From contig NZ_CABFVA020000066.1 of the NCBI RefSeq assembly GCF_902143375.2, positions 1 through 58,004 on the forward strand: a stretch of DNA of 58,004 bases, in the 5' to 3' direction. The notes beneath the pieces were generated by a model. It was not told where the DNA came from and made no database searches. It saw only the letters and a program-made list of their open reading frames with translations. The stretch comes from Methylacidimicrobium tartarophylax (GTDB lineage: Bacteria > Verrucomicrobiota > Verrucomicrobiia > Methylacidiphilales > Methylacidiphilaceae). Positions 11,937 to 19,674 of the stretch are shown in pieces; position 1 is the stretch's first letter, and each line of letters starts with the position of its first letter. The position numbers and the translations under genes are program-made.

Positions 11937-12029
11937 GTTCTAGAGAATAGAGATCCGGCTCTCCGGGGCTCTCGCTTGCGCTACAACATCCCCGGCCTCG
12001 CCGGAACGGCTGCGAGGGCAGCCGCTTCC
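11916..12029 (-). ncRNA. Candidate omega RNA (TnpB guide scaffold) at the IS200/IS605 right end
   Basis: The tnpB 3' end and the right end fold strongly: a 7-bp stem CGGCTGC/GCAGCCG with a 4-base loop (12007-12024), extended outward by GGAA/TTCC past one bulge; a competing CCGGC/GCCGG stem (11992-12004); then the terminal hairpin 11916-11936. TnpB proteins use an RNA from exactly this place, with the guide reading into the flank. Here that flank would be the bases left of 11916 on the minus strand. The fold is seen; the RNA itself is inferred. Confidence 0.5.
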
Positions 12030-13502
12030 CTTTTTCCCCTTCGACGGACGACCGGCTCTGACGTTCCTGACGTGCGGTCGGGACAAGCCCTCCCGTCTCG
12101 CTGGTTCCTGCATCCTCGACATCGCCCGTCGCAGGAGCGGTTCCGCACCCGGCCAAGCCTTTCGGACCTGGCTGATGTCGAGGAAATCCTTCTCGGAGCA
12201 TTTTGCGAGGAAGGCGCTGTAGAGATCCCGCTGCACCGGCTCGGTGCGGCCGTCGCCGAAGACGTGCATCCTCTCCGAGAGCGGCTTCTTCGCATAGTGG
12301 CCCGTTGTGTGATCAAACTGGCTCAAGCGGGTCTTCCGGGGATCGATCTCGATGAGTCCGCCGCCGGCACTCTCAGCCTTGCGGCGAATCCTCTCCACCA
12401 GCATCCCCGGAGCGCGCACCTTCACGCTCCTTCCGAAATTTCTCTGAAAGCTCCTATAGCATAGCTTCTCCCCCTTGATGGTCTTTCCTTGGGCTAATAT
12501 CCGATTCGCAAGATTGCCGTGCGCGGTCTTCCGGGCTGCGGCGAGCCGCCGCTCGGTTTCTGCGAGATACCGTTGCCTGCGCTTGTAGCGTTCCGACCGG
12601 ATCCACCGCTTGACGCCGCGCTTCACCCGGCCCTCGGTGTCGTAATTTCTAGGATTGGTCGCCCGGCGGGACCGATCCATGGACCGCAGGATCCGCCGCG
12701 TCTCCCTCCAGGGCTGATCGACTTCCGGACAGAGCCTTTCGAGGCCGGCATCGGTGTCCGAGACGAAGGCTAGCGTGGACGGCCCCAGGTCGTAGCCGAC
12801 TACCCCCTCCCCCGCGGACCGAACCTGCGGGGCGACTCCTTCCTGGACGAGCTGCGCGTACCAGCGGGCCTTCCCACGGATGGTCCGGCGGACGATGCGC
12901 ACGTGCTTGGTCCTGGCCTCCAGCGCGATCCGCTGCCAGCCGCGCTTGTCCTTCGGATCGAGCCGAAGCGGCAAGGCCAACCCCGCCCAGTAAATCGCCG
13001 GAACCGGCTCTTTCCGGAACCGGATCACGGCATCGCCCTTGCCTTCGACCGAGTGGAACCGGCTGGCCGGCTTGAATCTCGGCCGGCCCCGGACGCCGAA
13101 GGCGTATTCCTTAACGGCTTGGAAAGCCCTTCGGCTCGTGGTCTGCGTATCGTGCGAACCCAGATGATCGGCAAGGAAGCAGGCATCCCGGCACGCCTGC
13201 GCAAACTTCTGCAGCGAGAAAGAGCTAAAGCCGAAGCTCTCCCGGATCTGGCGGAAAAGAGCGGTTCGTTCCCTGTTGCTGATCCGCTTCCCGCTCCGTT
13301 CGTCCTTGACCGTTTTCGGCATCTTGCAAGCCCGTTGCCAATCCTTGGATTGCCGCATCAAGGACAACCGTCGCAGAGTCTCGCCCAAGACGGCGTTGTA
13401 GAGCCGGCGGGCGGCATTGAGGCGCGTGGAGAGGGCAACCTCGTCCGCCGCGGTCGTCCGCAGCGGAAACTCGGCGATGAAGGATGGCGTCTTGGCTCGC
13501 AT
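11940..13502 (-). CDS. tnpB: TnpB RNA-guided nuclease homologue lacking zinc-ribbon cysteines
   Basis: A 520-residue OrfB/TnpB protein. RuvC motifs are present: VVGYDLGPSTL (Asp238), GEKLCYRSFQ (Glu345) and VQRDLYSAFL (Asp426). Where TnpB normally has two CxxC pairs of a zinc ribbon, this one reads TRLSQFDHTTGHYAKKPLSE with no cysteines at all. This ribbon-less form, with a QRDLYSAFL third motif, is a recurring TnpB branch rather than random decay, as far as I know. About 90 residues follow the third RuvC motif. The gene starts where tnpA ends (one shared base, 13502) and its 3' end lies in the probable guide RNA region. Confidence 0.88.
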   Translation of the reverse strand: MRAKTPSFIAEFPLRTTAADEVALSTRLNAARRLYNAVLGETLRRLSLMRQSKDWQRACKMPKTVKDERSGKRISNRERTALFRQIRESFGFSSFSLQKFAQACRDACFLADHLGSHDTQTTSRRAFQAVKEYAFGVRGRPRFKPASRFHSVEGKGDAVIRFRKEPVPAIYWAGLALPLRLDPKDKRGWQRIALEARTKHVRIVRRTIRGKARWYAQLVQEGVAPQVRSAGEGVVGYDLGPSTLAFVSDTDAGLERLCPEVDQPWRETRRILRSMDRSRRATNPRNYDTEGRVKRGVKRWIRSERYKRRQRYLAETERRLAAARKTAHGNLANRILAQGKTIKGEKLCYRSFQRNFGRSVKVRAPGMLVERIRRKAESAGGGLIEIDPRKTRLSQFDHTTGHYAKKPLSERMHVFGDGRTEPVQRDLYSAFLAKCSEKDFLDISQVRKAWPGAEPLLRRAMSRMQEPARREGLSRPHVRNVRAGRPSKGKKGSGCPRSRSGEAGDVVAQARAPESRISIL

Positions 13503-13900
13503 CAGATACGCTTCTGGTTCTCAATGTACTGCTTAACCATCGCCAGCGGAGCTCCGCCGACGGTCGCAACGAAGTAGCTGTTGGTCCACAAAGCTGGCAA
13601 CCTGCGGCGCAACTCCGGGAACTCGTGGCGGAGAATGGCTGACGTCCGTCCCTTGATCAGGCGCACGAGCCGATGAATATCATACTGAGGATCGCAGCCG
13701 ACAAGCAGGTGAACGTGATCGGGCATGACCTCCATCTCGATCGGATCGGCATTCTTCTCGACAAGAAGATCGAGAATCACCTGCTTCAGCCGCCGATCGA
13801 TTGGCTCCACCAACACCTTCCTCCGGTACTTCGGACACCATACGACATGGTATTTGCAGGAAAATACGACGTTCCTGTTGCTGCAATACCGCACCACCAC
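13502..13900 (-). CDS. tnpA: IS200-type Y1 HUH transposase TnpA
   Basis: A 132-residue Y1 transposase. It shows FSCKYHVVWCPKYRRKVL, the HUH metal site MPDHVHLLV, LIKGRTSAILR, and the catalytic tyrosine in MVKQYIENQK near the C-terminus. It excises and inserts single-stranded DNA by recognising the terminal hairpins. Length and motifs are complete, so it is probably active. Start at 13900, just inside the left-end hairpin. Confidence 0.93.
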   Translation of the reverse strand: MVVRYCSNRNVVFSCKYHVVWCPKYRRKVLVEPIDRRLKQVILDLLVEKNADPIEMEVMPDHVHLLVGCDPQYDIHRLVRLIKGRTSAILRHEFPELRRRLPALWTNSYFVATVGGAPLAMVKQYIENQKRI

Positions 13901-13964: not shown

Positions 13965-14102
13965 CTTGCGCGGCGATTTTCGGTCATCGAGCGTCGCTTC
14001 CGCTCCCTGCGCTCTCTCTGCCGCCTCTTCCAGGAAGTTTCCAGCGGCTTCGAGGGGGTGACGATCCGCTCCGACCGACACCAAGGAGCCCCGAAACTGG
14101 CG

Positions 14103-15137
14103 ATGGATCCCATCCTAGGACTCTATCCGACCGATTTGCAGCTCGAAGCCCGGAAAGGAGCGGCACTCTTCCGCTTCCGTTTCTTGGGTCAATCGCTCTC
14201 CGTGGAATGTGCCTGGGAGGCGGCTGCCGAAGTGCGGGAACTCTTGGAAGCGGCAGAGCCTCCGTCCGACGAAGAGGGGGCCGGCCCCTGTGCTGCGGTT
14301 CGGGTCTCGGGAGCGTCTTGGGAGGACCTCGGGGGAATGCCGGAGGTCGAGCGGACGATGCGGGAGCTGATCGAATATCCGCTCCGCAACCCCGAGCCCT
14401 ATCGGCGCATGGGCCTGGCTCCGCCGAAGGGAATCCTGCTCGTCGGTCCTCCCGGAACGGGAAAGACGACGATCGCCAAGATCTTGGCGACTCAGCTCGA
14501 TGCGCTCTTCCTTTCGGTTTCGGCAAGCGACATCAACTCGATGTGGCATGGGGAGAGCGAAAAGAACGTAGCTAGGCTCTTTGAGGATGCTCGTCGCATC
14601 GCCTCCGGCGGGTGGCTGGTCGTCCTCTTCTTCGATGAGATCGACGGTCTCTGCACGAATCGGGACGAAATGGGCGTCGAGGGCGTCATGCGCCGCACCT
14701 TCGGCGAACTCTGCCGGGAAATGGACGGTCTGCGCCAAAACACGGGGATTGCGGTGCTTGCGGCAACCAACCGGTTCGGGGATCTGGATCCCGCCCTGGT
14801 TCGGCCCGGGCGCTTCGATCGCAAGATCGAGATCGGCCTCCCCCCCGAAGCGGCTCGCGCCGCCATCCTCCGGATCCATCTGCGGAAGCTCCCCGGCAGC
14901 GATAAGCTGGCGATCGAGCCGCTGGCCGCAGCCACCGAGGGCCTTTCCGGAGCCGAGCTGGCGGCCATCTGCCAGCGGGCAGCTTTCCTGGCCATGCGCC
15001 GACATGCGGCTAAGCACGGAGTGTCCTTGGTCGACCTGCGGGGATCCTTTTTGGAAGGCCTCTTCCTTGAGCGGGAGGACCTCGTCTGCGCCGTAGAGGA
15101 GATTCGTCGGGAGAAGAATCCGGGGTCGATTCGCTAA
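14103..15137 (+). CDS. AAA+ ATPase, Cdc48/proteasome-regulatory-like
   Basis: A single AAA+ module after an about 70-residue N-terminal domain. Seen are the Walker A GPPGTGKTT, the pore-loop area before SMWHGESEKN, Walker B VVLFFDEIDG, sensor 1 AATNRF, the second region of homology RPGRFDRKI with its arginine fingers, and the C-terminal GLSGAELAAICQRAAFLAM. Such ATPases unfold or remodel proteins; the partner is unknown. ATG 14103 follows AAGGAG by about 14 bases. The same frame stays open back through a GTG at 14058 as far as the IS hairpin (stop at 13953 inside it), so the true N-terminus may have been cut off by the IS200/IS605 insertion. Confidence 0.85.
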   Translation: MDPILGLYPTDLQLEARKGAALFRFRFLGQSLSVECAWEAAAEVRELLEAAEPPSDEEGAGPCAAVRVSGASWEDLGGMPEVERTMRELIEYPLRNPEPYRRMGLAPPKGILLVGPPGTGKTTIAKILATQLDALFLSVSASDINSMWHGESEKNVARLFEDARRIASGGWLVVLFFDEIDGLCTNRDEMGVEGVMRRTFGELCREMDGLRQNTGIAVLAATNRFGDLDPALVRPGRFDRKIEIGLPPEAARAAILRIHLRKLPGSDKLAIEPLAAATEGLSGAELAAICQRAAFLAMRRHAAKHGVSLVDLRGSFLEGLFLEREDLVCAVEEIRREKNPGSIR

Positions 15138-15316: not shown

Positions 15317-15490
15317 CTATCCCTGCTCGCCGCCTTCCTCGGGATGAGCGACCTCCCAATGGGAGATCCGATCGAAGATCGCCACCGCGATGCGACCGCC
15401 GGCCGCCTTCACGGCTTCCCATTTGTGCCAGCGCGAATCGAGTCCCTTGTATTCGGAAACGCAATCATCAAGTTGACGGATATTATCCAT
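15317..15490 (-). CDS. Small ORF (57 residues) reading out of the ISXO2-like element's left edge
   Basis: Starts MDNIRQLDDCVSEYKG and continues SRWHKWEAVKAAGG to a stop at 15317. Composition looks protein-like, and GAGGG lies about 10 bases before the ATG. The possible transposon terminus ATCAAGTTG (15467-15475) falls inside its first codons. It may therefore be the tail of a host gene cut by the insertion; a matching start (MIHRHLNHQR) reads toward the element on the other side, from 18084. No family recognised. Confidence 0.35.
   Translation of the reverse strand: MDNIRQLDDCVSEYKGLDSRWHKWEAVKAAGGRIAVAIFDRISHWEVAHPEEGGEQG
15467..15475 (+). repeat. Possible left inverted-repeat core ATCAAGTTG
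   Basis: Nine bases that recur inverted at 18039-18047 on the far side of the transposase-tnpB pair. Flanking bases match poorly. Short enough to be chance, but the position at both sides of the unit supports a terminal repeat. Confidence 0.4.
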
Positions 15491-15522
15491 AGGTGTAACA
15501 CCCTCAACATGAGTCGCCGGCG

Positions 15523-16477
15523 ATGTCTCTCCGTGAGTTTAACGAGATGTTTCCCGACGAGAATGCGGCGCGGGCGTGGTTCGAGAAGGCGCGCTGGCCG
15601 AATGGTCCCGTGTGCCCCCCAGTGTGGGCTTGTCGGGAGGGCATGGTGGATTTCCTCCAAGAAGTTCTGGTGCTGCTCGAGCTGCAACGAGCATTTCTCG
15701 GTGACGGCGGGCACGCCGATGCATCGCACCCACCTCTCTCTGCTCACATGGGCACAGGCCATCTATCGGATCGTGGCGTTCAGCAAGGGCAACTCGGACA
15801 GCAAACTGAGCGAGATGCTGGGCATCTCGTACCCGAGTGCATGGTATCTGGGGCATCGGGTGCGGGCGATGATGGCCGAAGCCAATCCCCTTCTTGCCGG
15901 TGTTGTGGAGTTGGATGAGATGTATGCGGGTGCGCCGTCCCGGAAACGGGCGAAATCATCCCGCGCTTCCGAGGAGTGCCAGACGCCGCCCGCCAACCCG
16001 AAGGGCCGGGGGACCAAGCGCTCGCTGCTCCGGATCGCCGCCGAGCGTGGCGGGAAGGTTGCCGCACGGGTCATCCCGACCCACGGCAAGGCCCCCATCG
16101 CGGAGGCCCTCGAAGGCAAGCTCGCCCCGGATGCGGTGGTCATGACAGACGGACGGCCGGCCTACAAACCCCTCGGCACCGAACGCACCCATCTGTACGT
16201 AATCCACTCCGACCGGGAGTATGCCCGCATCGACGCGGCCACCGGCCATCGGGGCCACGTCAACCGGGTCGAATCCTTCAACAGTTTCCTGCGCCGTGCG
16301 GTCCTCGGAGTCTGGCACCAGATCCGCGCGAAGCATCTCGGGCGCTACGCCGCTGAAACCGCCTTCCGATGGAACCGGAAGACCCAGTCCACAGTAGCCC
16401 GGATGGCAGAGCGGGTCCGGGACGGCGAAGGCCGTCTGCTCTGCTACGTCTTGCTGACGGCCAAGACCACCGCATGA
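15523..16477 (+). pseudogene. ISXO2-like (IS1595-family) DDE transposase, frameshifted in a C6 run
   Basis: Begins MSLREFNEMFPDENAARAWF then RWPNGPVCP, the standard N-terminus of this family. The second CxxC (QCGLVGRAW) and all the rest lie in the next frame: HFSVTAGTPMHRTHLSLLTW, YLGHRVRAMM, VVELDEMYAG, VVMTDGRPAY, and the family C-terminus HVNRVESFNSFLRRAV. Removing one C from the six at 15615-15620 restores a single frame of about 317 codons. The lesion may be a real indel, a sequencing error, or a slippage site. The acidic catalytic residues are otherwise in place. The stop overlaps the tnpB ATG (ATGA at 16474-16477), so tnpB translation could be coupled to it. Confidence 0.85.
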
Positions 16478-18036
16478 AGAAAAAGCCCGAACACCCGCCG
16501 GTTCTGCGTACCGACCTGCTGCCCTCCAACCTGACGGCGGGCAAGCGGGCCAAGGTCCTGGATCTGCTGGCGGCCTATCGCCGAGGGGCTGTGCTGCTCG
16601 GCCGCGAGCAATGGCGGCTGTTTTTCGAGACGGGCAGGTTCGACAAGATCCACGATGTGGACAAGAAGACCTTTGCTGCCGTGATGGGAGCGGCGAACCG
16701 GGTCCAGATGTGCCGTTACCAGGTCGTCGGCCAGCTGAAGGGATGGGTGAGCAACCGGGCGAACGAGTTCCGCGATGTGGTGAACCGCAGCAGTCTGCCA
16801 CCCGAAACCAAGCACAGGCTCCATGTCCTAAACCGCATGGGAGCATGGTTCGTCCGTGCGGATGTGGCGATGCGCGAGACGGGCGAGGTTATCCCTCGGG
16901 AAGTTAGGCGGCTGGCCCGGTCCATCATGCGGCATCTGATGAGTCGCCACCGACGGCCGGATCTTTCGCGGATCTCCCTGCGGCTCGACCACAGGGCGGC
17001 CTCTCTGGCCGCGCCGGTGAAGGCGACGCAAGGTGGCAGGGTGCGCTGGTGGCTGAAGCTATCCACGATGGAACCGGGCAAGAGGATCGCCATCCCGCTG
17101 CTGGACTACGAATATCACGCGCGTCGGGCGGGCCGCACAATCGACGGCATACAAATCCATTGCGACCGCGAGGGGCGGCTGAATTTCGGCGTCGTGACGG
17201 ACATCGGGGAGGCTTGTGCCAGGAGTCGCGCCGAATACGACGGTCGGGGCGTCCTTGCGTTGGATTTCGGCCTATCCACCCTCTTGGCCACATCCGAAGG
17301 CCAGCTGCTCGGGCGGGACTGGCTCAAGCGGCTGCGCCGCTACGACGCCCTGCTGACGATGATTGCCGCCAGCCAGCAGCGGGCAGGGAAGAAGCCGCGC
17401 CGGAGCCGGCGGTACCGGGCCTTCGTCGAGGATCTCCGCGGATTTCTCCGTACCGAGATCGGCCGCGTCCTCAACAAGCTGGTGGCCGACGGCCGGCCGG
17501 AGGAGCTGGTTCTCGAACGGCTCGACTTCTGTCATCCGGACCTGTCCCGCCGGATGAACTCCCTTTTGCACCGCTGCGGACGGGCAGTCCTGCGGTCGAA
17601 ACTAGCCGACCTGGCGGACCGGTTCGGAGTGGCGGCCGTCGAGGTCAATGCCGCCTACACGAGCCAGACCTGCTCTTCCTGCGGCTACGTGGACCGGCGG
17701 AACCGGGCCGGCCGAAGCCGGTTCCGCTGCCTATGGTGCGGGAAAGAATTGCATGCCGACCTCAATGCCGCATCGAACATCGGGGCGCGCCGTGCGCGTC
17801 CCATTGGTTCGGTGTTCGTGGGGAAGGCGGCGGTCCTTGCCGAACTCGTGCGCGAGTTCGGGGAGCGACGGATGCGGGCCTATGGCCCGCGTCGAACCGG
17901 GAGCAGGGGTGCCCCCGTCGACCCACGCGAGACGAATCCCTACTTCGGCGGGATGCCGTCGAGCGTGGTGAGGTCATCCGGACGCCGCAAGGCGTCCAGG
18001 AAATCAGTATCGGCTCCAGCCCCAGCGGCTGCATGA
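16474..18036 (+). CDS. tnpB: TnpB RNA-guided nuclease homologue with intact RuvC and zinc ribbon
   Basis: A 520-residue TnpB. RuvC-I is VLALDFGLSTLL (Asp264), RuvC-II ELVLERLDF (Glu348), and RuvC-III ELHADLNAASNI (Asp429). The zinc ribbon is TSQTCSSCGY plus FRCLWCG (Cys400, 403, 419, 422). All catalytic and metal residues are present. It shares less than RuvC-motif similarity with the TnpB at 11940-13502, so the two are different lineages. An 84-residue basic tail follows the ribbon; its DNA (17840-18036) is where the strong hairpins lie, as in known tnpB genes whose guide RNA overlaps the 3' coding end. The start overlaps the ISXO2-like transposase stop, an unusual partner: TnpB usually travels with Y1 or serine transposases. 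Confidence 0.9.
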   Translation: MKKKPEHPPVLRTDLLPSNLTAGKRAKVLDLLAAYRRGAVLLGREQWRLFFETGRFDKIHDVDKKTFAAVMGAANRVQMCRYQVVGQLKGWVSNRANEFRDVVNRSSLPPETKHRLHVLNRMGAWFVRADVAMRETGEVIPREVRRLARSIMRHLMSRHRRPDLSRISLRLDHRAASLAAPVKATQGGRVRWWLKLSTMEPGKRIAIPLLDYEYHARRAGRTIDGIQIHCDREGRLNFGVVTDIGEACARSRAEYDGRGVLALDFGLSTLLATSEGQLLGRDWLKRLRRYDALLTMIAASQQRAGKKPRRSRRYRAFVEDLRGFLRTEIGRVLNKLVADGRPEELVLERLDFCHPDLSRRMNSLLHRCGRAVLRSKLADLADRFGVAAVEVNAAYTSQTCSSCGYVDRRNRAGRSRFRCLWCGKELHADLNAASNIGARRARPIGSVFVGKAAVLAELVREFGERRMRAYGPRRTGSRGAPVDPRETNPYFGGMPSSVVRSSGRRKASRKSVSAPAPAAA

Positions 18037-18054
18037 GCCAACTTGATAGTACCC
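17840..18054 (+). ncRNA. Candidate omega RNA: five hairpins in the tnpB 3' end up to the element's right tip
   Basis: Seen in order: (1) a 9-bp perfect stem CCGAACTCG/CGAGTTCGG with a TGCG (UNCG-type) loop, 17840-17861; (2) a 7-bp stem GCGGGCC/GGCCCGC with loop TAT, 17874-17890, and outer CGAC/GTCG; (3) CGGG-A-GC/GC-C-CCCG with loop AGGGGT, 17898-17917, whose GGGT could pair with ACCC at 17921-17924; (4) a nested arm 17923-17968: CCACGC/GCGTGG, tandem GA/GA, GACG/CGTC, then ATCCC/GGGAT closing a loop that holds a C(TTCG)G tetraloop; (5) a 7-bp stem GGACGCC/GGCGTCC with a GCAA (GNRA) loop, 17980-17997. So many stable tetraloops in coding DNA point to selected RNA structure. The guide would begin past 18054. 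Confidence 0.68.
18039..18047 (-). repeat. Possible right inverted-repeat core CAACTTGAT
   Basis: Starts two bases after the tnpB stop codon. On the minus strand the end would read GGGTACTATCAAGTTGG, a plausible IS1595-type terminus starting with GG. Confidence 0.45.
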
Positions 18055-18131
18055 ACGCTGGTGGTTCAGATGGCGATGAATCATGGCCCCGCAGAGAACG
18101 TTTCTGCCTCCGGCGGAATCTTATGCGATCG

Positions 18132-18189: not shown

Positions 18190-19674
18190 CTATCCCGTCC
18201 CGTCGTTCCCCAGGTCTTCCTCCAGCAGCTCCGGCTCCTGCAAGAGGCGGGCCGACTGGTCGATCGGCTCCGGCGTCTCGATGACCGCTCCTTCCGGGGC
18301 CGCCTGGAGGCCCGTGAAGCGCCTCGCCGTCACCAGCACCCGCGATTCGAGAGTGGCCGTTGCCTTGTTGTAGGCCTTGATCGCCTGCTCCATCCCCTTG
18401 CCGACCCCGGCCCAATGGTCGGCCAGGGTGGTGATCCGCTTGTAGAGGGTCCGGCCCAGCTCGCTGATCGCCCGGGCGTTTTCGGTGAGCGCTTCCTGTT
18501 GCCAGCCGTAGGCGACCGCTTGCAAAAGGGCGATCAAGGTCGTCGGCGTGGCCGGGATCACCCGCTTCCCGACCCCGTAGTCGAGGAGCCCCGGGTCCTG
18601 CTGGAGGGCCGCCGAGAAGAACATCTCCCCCGGCAGGAAGAGGACGACGAACTCCGGCGTCGGCGCGAACTGCTCCCAGTAAGCCTTCTTGCTCAGATTG
18701 GCGATATGCTCCCGGACCTGCCGGGCATGGTCGGCCAGCCGGGCGATCCTCGCCGGCTCGTCGGACGCCTCGACCGCTTCCAGGTAGGCGGCGATCGGCG
18801 CCTTCGCATCGATGACGATCTGCTTTCCCCCGGGCAGCCGGATGATCAGGTCCGGCCGCAGCCGGCCCTCTTCCCCCTCCACGCTCGTCTGCTCGAGGAA
18901 GTCGCAGCGCTCGACCATCCCCGCCATCTCGACGACCCGCCGGAGCTGCATCTCCCCCCACCGCCCGCGCGCCACCGGCTGCCGGAGGGCCTTGACCAGG
19001 TTGGCGGTCTCGCTGCGAAGCTGGGGCAGGTGGGTCTCCACCAGCGCCTTGAGCTGCTCGTGAAGCGCGCTGTAGGCCCCGATCCGGTTCCGCTCGATCT
19101 CTCCCAGCTTCCCGTCGACCTTCTGGAGCGATTCGCGGATCGGCTGCGTCAAGGCCTCCACCGCCGTCTTCCGGGCCTCGAGTTCGGCCTTCGCCCCTTC
19201 CTGGAACTGGGCGAAGTTTTCCCGGGCGAGCGTCAGGAAAGCCTCGTTGTTCTGCCGGAGCGCTTCCGCGGAAAGCCCGCGGAATGCCTCTCCGAGCTTG
19301 GCCCGAGCCTCCTCCAGGATTTGGAGCTTTTCCTGGGCTGCTTTTTCCGTTTGGGAAAGCCGGCTTTGCAGCTCGGCAACCCGCATCCGAGCTTCCCCGA
19401 GCTCACCCCGGCTTTCCTGAAGCTCGGCTTCCAAGCCGGGAAGGCGGCTCGCCTTCGCCTCCGCCGCCGCCCGCCGTTCGGTCTCCTCTCGCAGGGCGGC
19501 CGTGGCTTCCTCCCCGGCCCGCCGACTCTCCGCAAGCTCTGCTTCCCATCGGCCGCGGCTGCTCTCCCATTCCCCGAGCTTGGCGCGCAGCGCGGCCCCG
19601 CTCCCCCGTCCCAAAAGCCAGACGACCGCCGCCCCGACCGCCGCCCCGAGCAGCCCAATTCCCAAGCTTTCCAT
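18190..19674 (-). CDS. rmuC: RmuC family protein (DNA recombination-limiting)
   Basis: A 494-residue protein with an N-terminal membrane segment (IGLLGAAVGAAVVWLLG), a long coiled coil to about residue 170, then the RmuC core: GRWGEMQLRRVVEMAGM, LRPDLIIRLPGGKQIVIDAKAP, FVVLFLPGEMFFSAALQQDP, VIPATPTTLIALLQAVAYGWQQEAL. The DAK and E residues fit the PD-(D/E)xK nuclease fold proposed for the family. RmuC limits inversions at short repeats in E. coli; mechanism not settled. Length is normal and the gene looks intact. It is transcribed toward the IS element. Confidence 0.94.
   Translation of the reverse strand: MESLGIGLLGAAVGAAVVWLLGRGSGAALRAKLGEWESSRGRWEAELAESRRAGEEATAALREETERRAAAEAKASRLPGLEAELQESRGELGEARMRVAELQSRLSQTEKAAQEKLQILEEARAKLGEAFRGLSAEALRQNNEAFLTLARENFAQFQEGAKAELEARKTAVEALTQPIRESLQKVDGKLGEIERNRIGAYSALHEQLKALVETHLPQLRSETANLVKALRQPVARGRWGEMQLRRVVEMAGMVERCDFLEQTSVEGEEGRLRPDLIIRLPGGKQIVIDAKAPIAAYLEAVEASDEPARIARLADHARQVREHIANLSKKAYWEQFAPTPEFVVLFLPGEMFFSAALQQDPGLLDYGVGKRVIPATPTTLIALLQAVAYGWQQEALTENARAISELGRTLYKRITTLADHWAGVGKGMEQAIKAYNKATATLESRVLVTARRFTGLQAAPEGAVIETPEPIDQSARLLQEPELLEEDLGNDGTG

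What the first reader, a model, noticed from the sequence alone, without database searches (positions are those of the whole stretch)
15523..18036. A full zinc-ribbon TnpB translationally coupled to an ISXO2/IS1595-type DDE transposase
The DDE transposase stop and the tnpB start share ATGA (16474-16477), and the tnpB stop lies two bases before the likely element end. TnpB nucleases are well known with Y1 (IS200/IS605) and serine (IS607) transposases or alone; a cut-and-paste DDE partner with an operon overlap is unusual as far as I know. All RuvC (Asp264, Glu348, Asp429) and zinc-ribbon residues are intact. Unlike single-strand 'peel and paste' elements, a DDE element leaves a double-strand gap, so an RNA-guided nuclease could act in homing or in element retention. 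The mode is inference.
Basis: partly seen in the sequence, partly recalled or inferred. Interest (0 to 1): 0.88.

Follow-up and report, generated by a model that had tools for sequence, protein, structure and literature searches.

The report
DDE insertion sequence carrying guided TnpB
This is a cut-and-paste bacterial jumping gene (IS1595 type) that carries an intact TnpB gene and a conserved guide-RNA-like region, and its copies sit only where TnpB could re-cut the empty site, which suggests that RNA-guided homing, known from two other transposase types in bacteria, was also adopted by a DDE transposase.

Summary
The junction is real and not a chance insertion. In two same-genus genomes, 13 copies of a 72%-identical element share ends enclosing both genes: ~24-bp inverted repeats and 8-bp target duplications; empty sites exist in sister genomes. 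The window element is 15460-18054. Its tnpB (16474-18036) is intact; its tnpA has a window-specific frameshift at C6 (15615-15620), but relatives have intact tnpA. The same unit occurs in Indioceanicola, Salipiger and an IMG/VR contig; the linked TnpBs form one clade nested among IS607-linked TnpBs. The last 300 nt hold a strongly folded, covarying RNA overlapping tnpB's end, the place and shape of an omegaRNA. In 21 of 21 insertions RTA lies directly 5' of the left duplication and TA never lies on the right, whereas TnpB-less IS1595 insertions have TA on either side: what a TnpB TAM (guide = right flank) predicts. Derivatives keep tnpB after in-frame tnpA deletions, or only ends plus RNA (351-bp copy). 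Best reading: an IS1595 element using TnpB-omegaRNA for retention/homing. Cleavage is untested. No description of bacterial TnpB with a DDE partner was found in the papers searched.

The parts
15449..15451 (+). GTA directly 5' of the left 8-nt site: candidate TAM (RTA)
   Evidence: Same place reads RTA in 21/21 mapped insertions
15452..15459 (+). left 8-nt target-duplication position (TTCGGAAA); does not match the right 8 nt in this copy
15460..15483 (+). left terminal inverted repeat (CGCAATCATCAAGTTGAC...)
   Evidence: Identical 20-nt end in the 351-bp relative L047 with perfect duplication; alignment to mapped copies
15509..16477 (+). tnpA, IS1595/ISXO2 DDE transposase; frame shifted near the start relative to relatives; DDE triad residues present
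   Evidence: PF12762, NF033547; alignment A4; ORF
15615..15620 (+). C6 run with one extra base that splits zinc ribbon (frame 1) and DDE domain (frame 2)
   Evidence: PF12760 hit in the 15523-15633 frame, PF12762 in the other frame; relatives unbroken there
16474..18036 (+). tnpB, 520 aa, RuvC D264/E348/D429 and TNB zinc ribbon intact; ATGA overlap with tnpA
17755..18054 (+). predicted omegaRNA scaffold overlapping the tnpB 3' end and running to the element end
   Evidence: third-position conservation, MFE z -5.5, covariation with controls, only region of the element that stands out, retained alone in the 351-bp relative
18031..18054 (+). right terminal inverted repeat (...CAACTTGATAGTACCC)
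18055..18074 (+). right flank: predicted guide segment of the omegaRNA transcript (inference)
   Evidence: position rule known for TnpB elements (PMC8612924, PMC11061315); not tested here

Best explanation
It is an IS1595-type (ISXO2-like) insertion sequence in which a DDE transposase and an RNA-guided TnpB nuclease are expressed from overlapping genes. The DDE transposase moves the element as duplex DNA and makes an 8-bp target duplication (shown by ends, duplications and empty sites; duplex chemistry from the known family). The last ~300 nt of the element form an omegaRNA scaffold overlapping the tnpB 3' end (shown as a conserved, covarying fold; its transcription is inferred). The RNA would read past the right end into the target duplication and flank, which become the guide (inferred). 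TnpB then recognises RTA plus that target in any unoccupied allele (TAM inferred from 21/21 insertions) and cuts it, so that repair from an element-bearing copy restores or spreads the element (inferred from IS605/IS607 work). Because RTA lies outside the left duplication, only a site with one copy of the duplication is a target: the pre-insertion allele or a precise excision product, not a two-duplication scar. This favours homing/retention against empty sister or plasmid alleles. Copies lacking a full tnpA, and RNA-only copies, are probably mobilised in trans.
For: 13 copies in G001/G005, mapped ends and 8-bp duplications; empty sites; same unit in Indioceanicola, Salipiger and IMG/VR L195; one TnpB clade nested among IS607 TnpBs; RuvC triad and zinc ribbon intact; fold matches to Cas12f and to IS607/ISDra2 TnpB structures; omegaRNA-like region; RTA 21/21 on the left, TA 0/20 on the right, against TnpB-less controls 9 left, 5 right, 2 both, 4 none; five distinct tnpA deletions all keep the frame into tnpB, and tnpB dN/dS is 0.30-0.35; 351-bp derivative keeping only ends plus RNA region, with perfect duplication and ATA.
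Against: No RNA, cleavage or transposition data. The left-only TA could be a property of this transposase rather than of TnpB; the controls are mostly one IS (ISRm32) whose transposase is only ~32% identical, and nearer TnpB-less relatives mostly gave no clean duplications. The window copy itself has a frameshifted tnpA and unmatched flanks, so it may be an old or recombined copy. TnpB scores below the NCBIfam guided_TnpB cut-off (74.8 against 100).
Confidence: 0.78

Rival explanations
1. The one-sided RTA is a target preference built into this subgroup's DDE transposase or its unequal ends; TnpB is carried and may be active, but does not shape which insertions persist.
For: TnpB-less ISRm32 also prefers TA beside the duplication, so TA recognition is at least partly a transposase trait; the inverted repeats of most TnpB elements are imperfect (15-17 of 24).
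Against: ISRm32 uses either orientation at the same repeated target, and a two-fold symmetric DDE complex is not expected to give 21:0; Salipiger has 22/24 symmetric ends and still RTA left only. RTA extends the TA by a purine seen in only 4/20 controls.
Confidence: 0.25
2. TnpB is a regulatory or otherwise non-cleaving passenger (TldR-like) using the same RNA.
For: No cleavage data; some TnpB relatives have been turned into RNA-guided regulators (TldR family, PMC13418256, seen as title and abstract start only).
Against: RuvC D-E-D and zinc ligands intact; tnpB under purifying selection even in copies without a full tnpA.
Confidence: 0.07
3. Chance nesting: a TnpB element inserted next to an unrelated IS1595, giving an accidental overlap.
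For: An IS200/IS605 element lies 1.5 kb upstream in this window, and G001 has an unrelated TnpB near an IS1595 gene (L055).
Against: Shared ends and duplications enclose both genes in many copies and four separate sources; copies transpose as one unit.
Confidence: 0.01

Closest known systems
IS607 family TnpB elements (TnpB-reRNA, e.g. ISFba1)
   Same: Nearest TnpB relatives in the tree (Thermus, Bifidobacterium and two IMG/VR TnpBs) lie next to IS607 serine recombinases; guide RNA at the right end and a TAM beside the left end (PMC11061315).
   Different: Serine recombinase replaced by a DDE transposase; terminal inverted repeats and 8-bp duplications; RNA overlaps tnpB, unlike RAGATH-18 reRNAs (PMC11061315); candidate TAM RTA rather than AGGAG or GAGGG.
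IS200/IS605 TnpB-omegaRNA elements (ISDra2)
   Same: TnpB with overlapping right-end omegaRNA (PMC11061315, PMC8612924); retention role proposed (PMC10278001, PMC11870625). TnpB kept in TnpA-less derivatives (own knowledge).
   Different: No Y1 transposase and no single-strand peel-and-paste; transposition with target duplication, so the TAM lies outside the duplication.
IS1595 family (ISXO2, ISRm32, ISPepr2)
   Same: PF12762/NF033547 transposase with PF12760 zinc ribbon, inverted repeats, 8-bp direct repeats (ISApl4 paper PMC12561309).
   Different: Carries tnpB plus omegaRNA-like region; target TA on one side only.
Fanzor1 in eukaryotic DDE transposons
   Same: TnpB-related nuclease inside DDE-transposase elements (hAT, Mariner, Sola, MuDr, IS4; PMC3627910, PMC10711439).
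   Different: Eukaryotic, divergent Fanzor active site; here a bacterial TnpB with the RuvC residues at the usual places and a bacterial IS1595 transposase.

Membership tests
IS1595 family | IS1595/ISXO2 DDE transposase domain | tested here: met
   PF12762 90 bits, NF033547 137 bits over cut-off; triad positions conserved
IS1595 family | N-terminal zinc ribbon in frame | tested here: inconclusive
   PF12760 present but split from the DDE domain by a frameshift in the window; in frame in G001 and Salipiger relatives
IS1595 family | terminal inverted repeats | tested here: met
   15-22 of 24 matched in copies with mapped duplications; window ends homologous
IS1595 family | 8-bp target duplication | tested here: met
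   12 of 20 copies with both flanks perfect, empty sites single-copy; not matched in the window copy
TnpB RNA-guided nuclease | RuvC D-E-D triad and TNB zinc ribbon | tested here: met
   PF07282 63 bits; D264, E348, D429 and four Cys; fold matches
TnpB RNA-guided nuclease | NCBIfam guided_TnpB score above cut-off | tested here: not met
   74.8 bits against 100: divergent subfamily; best match all the same
TnpB RNA-guided nuclease | omegaRNA at the right end | tested here: met
   computational only: z -5.5, covariation beyond shuffles and slides
TnpB RNA-guided nuclease | conserved TAM-like motif 5' of the target at the left flank | tested here: met
   RTA 21/21; functional TAM not tested
TnpB RNA-guided nuclease | RNA-guided DNA cleavage | not testable with these tools
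   needs biochemistry
IS607 family | serine recombinase TnpA | tested here: not met
   partner is an IS1595 DDE transposase
IS200/IS605 family | Y1 HUH transposase | tested here: not met
   none inside the element; a separate Y1 gene lies at 13502-13900

The most novel reading that the evidence does not exclude
A bacterial DDE cut-and-paste transposon family took over an IS607-lineage TnpB-omegaRNA and uses it as a homing/retention drive whose TAM fixes the orientation in which insertions persist; it supports three tiers of copies: autonomous, tnpB-only, and guide-RNA-only miniature elements that could be moved by TnpA and defended by TnpB supplied in trans.
Probability: 0.6. Interest if true: 0.88.

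Novelty: new variant of a known kind. Interest (0 to 1): 0.82.

Why it matters
TnpB is thought to keep single-strand (Y1) and serine-recombinase elements from being lost. Finding the same module stably joined to a DDE transposase would show that RNA-guided homing is a portable strategy independent of the transposition chemistry, provide a bacterial parallel to Fanzor1 in eukaryotic DDE transposons, and offer a system in which transposase target choice and nuclease TAM choice can be separated. It also offers a clean genomic test: orientation bias of insertions as a footprint of nuclease selection.

Tried and rejected
Chance insertion of a TnpB element: rejected, shared ends enclose both genes. 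First guess for the left end (AGGTGTAAC near 15490): rejected after aligning to mapped copies and finding the 351-bp relative. Programmed frameshift in tnpA: rejected, relatives read through that place in one frame (one G001 copy is broken elsewhere). Rfam: no match. Own genome: single copy, so no within-genome replicate. A first control reading from loci on minus strands was redone after reorienting them. Most TnpB-less IS1595 singletons gave no resolvable duplication; one weak control (L087, 16/24, one mismatch) is kept in the 20. The genome-collection scan with one TnpB found only decayed fragments in an Acidiphilium MAG and one short match. L277: IS1595 transposase (50%) followed by a different, IS200/605-type TnpB start in a gapped scaffold; a single sighting, kept as a lead. 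Alignment A1 had three sequences on the wrong strand and was replaced by A2 and A5.

Full report
Observation. The ISXO2-type DDE domain and tnpB overlap by ATGA at 16474-16477. The domain is PF12762/NF033547, and TnpB is a 520-aa ORF with PF07282 and an intact RuvC triad and zinc ligands. Two points were wrong. The element ends are 15460 and 18054, and the tnpA reading is split by one extra C in a C6 run at 15615-15620. An ORF from 15509 to 16477 remains open with an off-frame start.

The unit. The window genome has one copy. Two same-genus genomes (G001, G005) carry 12 copies with TnpB at 71-72% identity plus one cut by a contig end. Aligning copies fixed the ends: CGGG..TATC.. and ..GATAGTACCC with 8-bp duplications. 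Empty sites in the sister genomes contain a single duplication and, in most, the native RTA. The same arrangement occurs in Indioceanicola profundi plasmids, a Salipiger profundus plasmid (IS1595 transposase directly followed by the TnpB gene; duplication ACGGCAGG, inverted repeats 22/24) and IMG/VR contig L195, where tnpA (69-70% to the G001 and window proteins) and tnpB (76%) are both intact with a perfect duplication. TnpA and TnpB diverge in parallel (Salipiger 45% and 42%).

Origin. In a maximum-likelihood tree the six IS1595-linked TnpBs form one clade (99/98) placed among IS607-linked TnpBs (Thermus, Bifidobacterium, L196, L197). A single capture from an IS607-type element is the simplest reading (inference).

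Guide RNA. In three pairwise comparisons third codon positions are about 40-75% identical (mostly ~50%) over most of tnpB but 62-80% over the last ~110 codons, as expected for an overlapping RNA. The last 300 nt of the window element fold with z -5.5; the nine other 300-nt windows of the element give -1.3 to +0.6. On 12 sequences the consensus fold has 17 pairs with compensatory changes; 51 both-side changes against 18.5 +- 2.7 in shuffles (0 of 500) and 3-8 in slid versions. Relatedness inflates the shuffle test; the slid control keeps relatedness, but the structure was derived from the same alignment. Rfam has no match.

TAM-like footprint. In all 21 mapped insertions (13 in G001/G005, window, two Indioceanicola, Salipiger, one in G003, L195, L198, L278) the three bases directly 5' of the left duplication are RTA (A 11, G 10), the next base is T or A in 20, and TA never follows the right duplication (0 of 20). 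In TnpB-less IS1595 insertions (20, mainly ISRm32) TA is left only 9, right only 5, both 2, none 4; RTA left 4 of 20. Fisher for left-only: p = 5e-5; for side among one-sided cases p = 0.006. ISRm32 inserts in both orientations into the same repeated target. So TA preference belongs to the transposase family, but the one-sidedness and the purine belong to the TnpB-bearing group. This is the side on which a TAM must lie if the guide is the right flank; the same logic was used for IS607 TnpB (PMC11061315). In G005 the paralogous repeats near one insertion lack both RTA and a matching guide target, so no intact self-target is seen there (one case).

Derivatives. Six G001/G005 copies carry four distinct internal tnpA deletions, and Indioceanicola a fifth; all keep tnpA's frame so that its stop overlaps the tnpB start (TGATG), which by chance would be about 1 in 243. 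The 1922-bp form sits at two sites with perfect duplications. tnpB has no internal stop in any of the 12 and dN/dS 0.30-0.35 against 0.60 for tnpA (tnpA from three copies only). A 351-bp copy in G003 (L047 4185-4535) consists of the left end, exactly the RNA region and the right end, with perfect duplication TCTACCGT and ATA upstream. L198 and L278 are further derivatives that keep parts of the RNA region.

Mechanism. Shown: the unit transposes with an 8-bp duplication; a conserved RNA fold at the right end; intact nuclease residues; one-sided RTA. Inferred: transcription past the right end, cleavage, repair-coupled retention. A consequence specific to an element with a target duplication: with RTA outside the left duplication and the guide starting at the right duplication, only a site with a single duplication copy is a target, i.e. 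an unoccupied sister chromosome, plasmid or exact excision product. This points to homing/drive against empty alleles, as shown for TnpB on plasmids (PMC11870625), more than to cutting of excision scars.

Known work. Open-access papers held here describe TnpB with Y1 and serine transposases (PMC8612924, PMC11061315, PMC9956272) and Fanzor1 with eukaryotic DDE transposons (PMC3627910, PMC10711439); the five papers holding both 'TnpB' and 'IS1595' did not look from titles and abstracts to describe this pairing. Subscription papers, ISfinder and most preprints could not be searched, so priority is not certain.

Structure. AlphaFold2 from 14 sequences gave pLDDT 73, pTM 0.44; Foldseek's best PDB matches are Cas12f, with ISFba1 IS607 TnpB and ISDra2 TnpB also significant. 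TM-scores are low (about 0.2-0.3), so this only supports membership in the TnpB/Cas12 superfamily.

Verdict. A real, recurrent and apparently undescribed association; strong genomic support for a guide-RNA locus and for TAM-shaped insertion sites; biochemical activity unproven.

Noticed in passing
window 11940-13900 (-): A separate IS200/IS605 pair: Y1 TnpA (13502-13900, PF01797) overlapping a 520-aa TnpB-like gene (NCBIfam guided_TnpB 78.7 bits, below cut-off) with no PF07282 zinc ribbon found, possibly a ribbon-less variant or dead TnpB.
   Followed up: partly
L277 3001-4462 (IMGVR_UViG_2840042175_000011): An IS1595 transposase (50% to L195's) followed immediately by the start of a different, IS200/605-type TnpB before a scaffold gap: possibly a second independent TnpB-IS1595 pairing.
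   Followed up: partly
L047 4185-4535 (G003 contig 58): 351-bp miniature element made of the two ends plus only the predicted omegaRNA region, with perfect 8-bp duplication.
   Followed up: yes
L195 and L198 (IMG/VR contigs from one metagenome, 3300025534): TnpB-IS1595 elements lie on contigs classed as viral (148 kb and 86 kb), suggesting phage or prophage carriage.
   Followed up: no
ISRm32 loci L095-L097, L100, L107, L114, L115: TnpB-less ISRm32 repeatedly inserts, in both orientations, into copies of one repeated target (cgcata ATGTATC).
   Followed up: partly
L079 7371-8312: A second, different IS1595 family transposase gene about 2 kb from the TnpB element on the Indioceanicola plasmid.
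   Followed up: no
window 14058-15137 (+) and 18190-19674 (-): The element lies between an AAA ATPase gene and an rmuC gene.
   Followed up: partly
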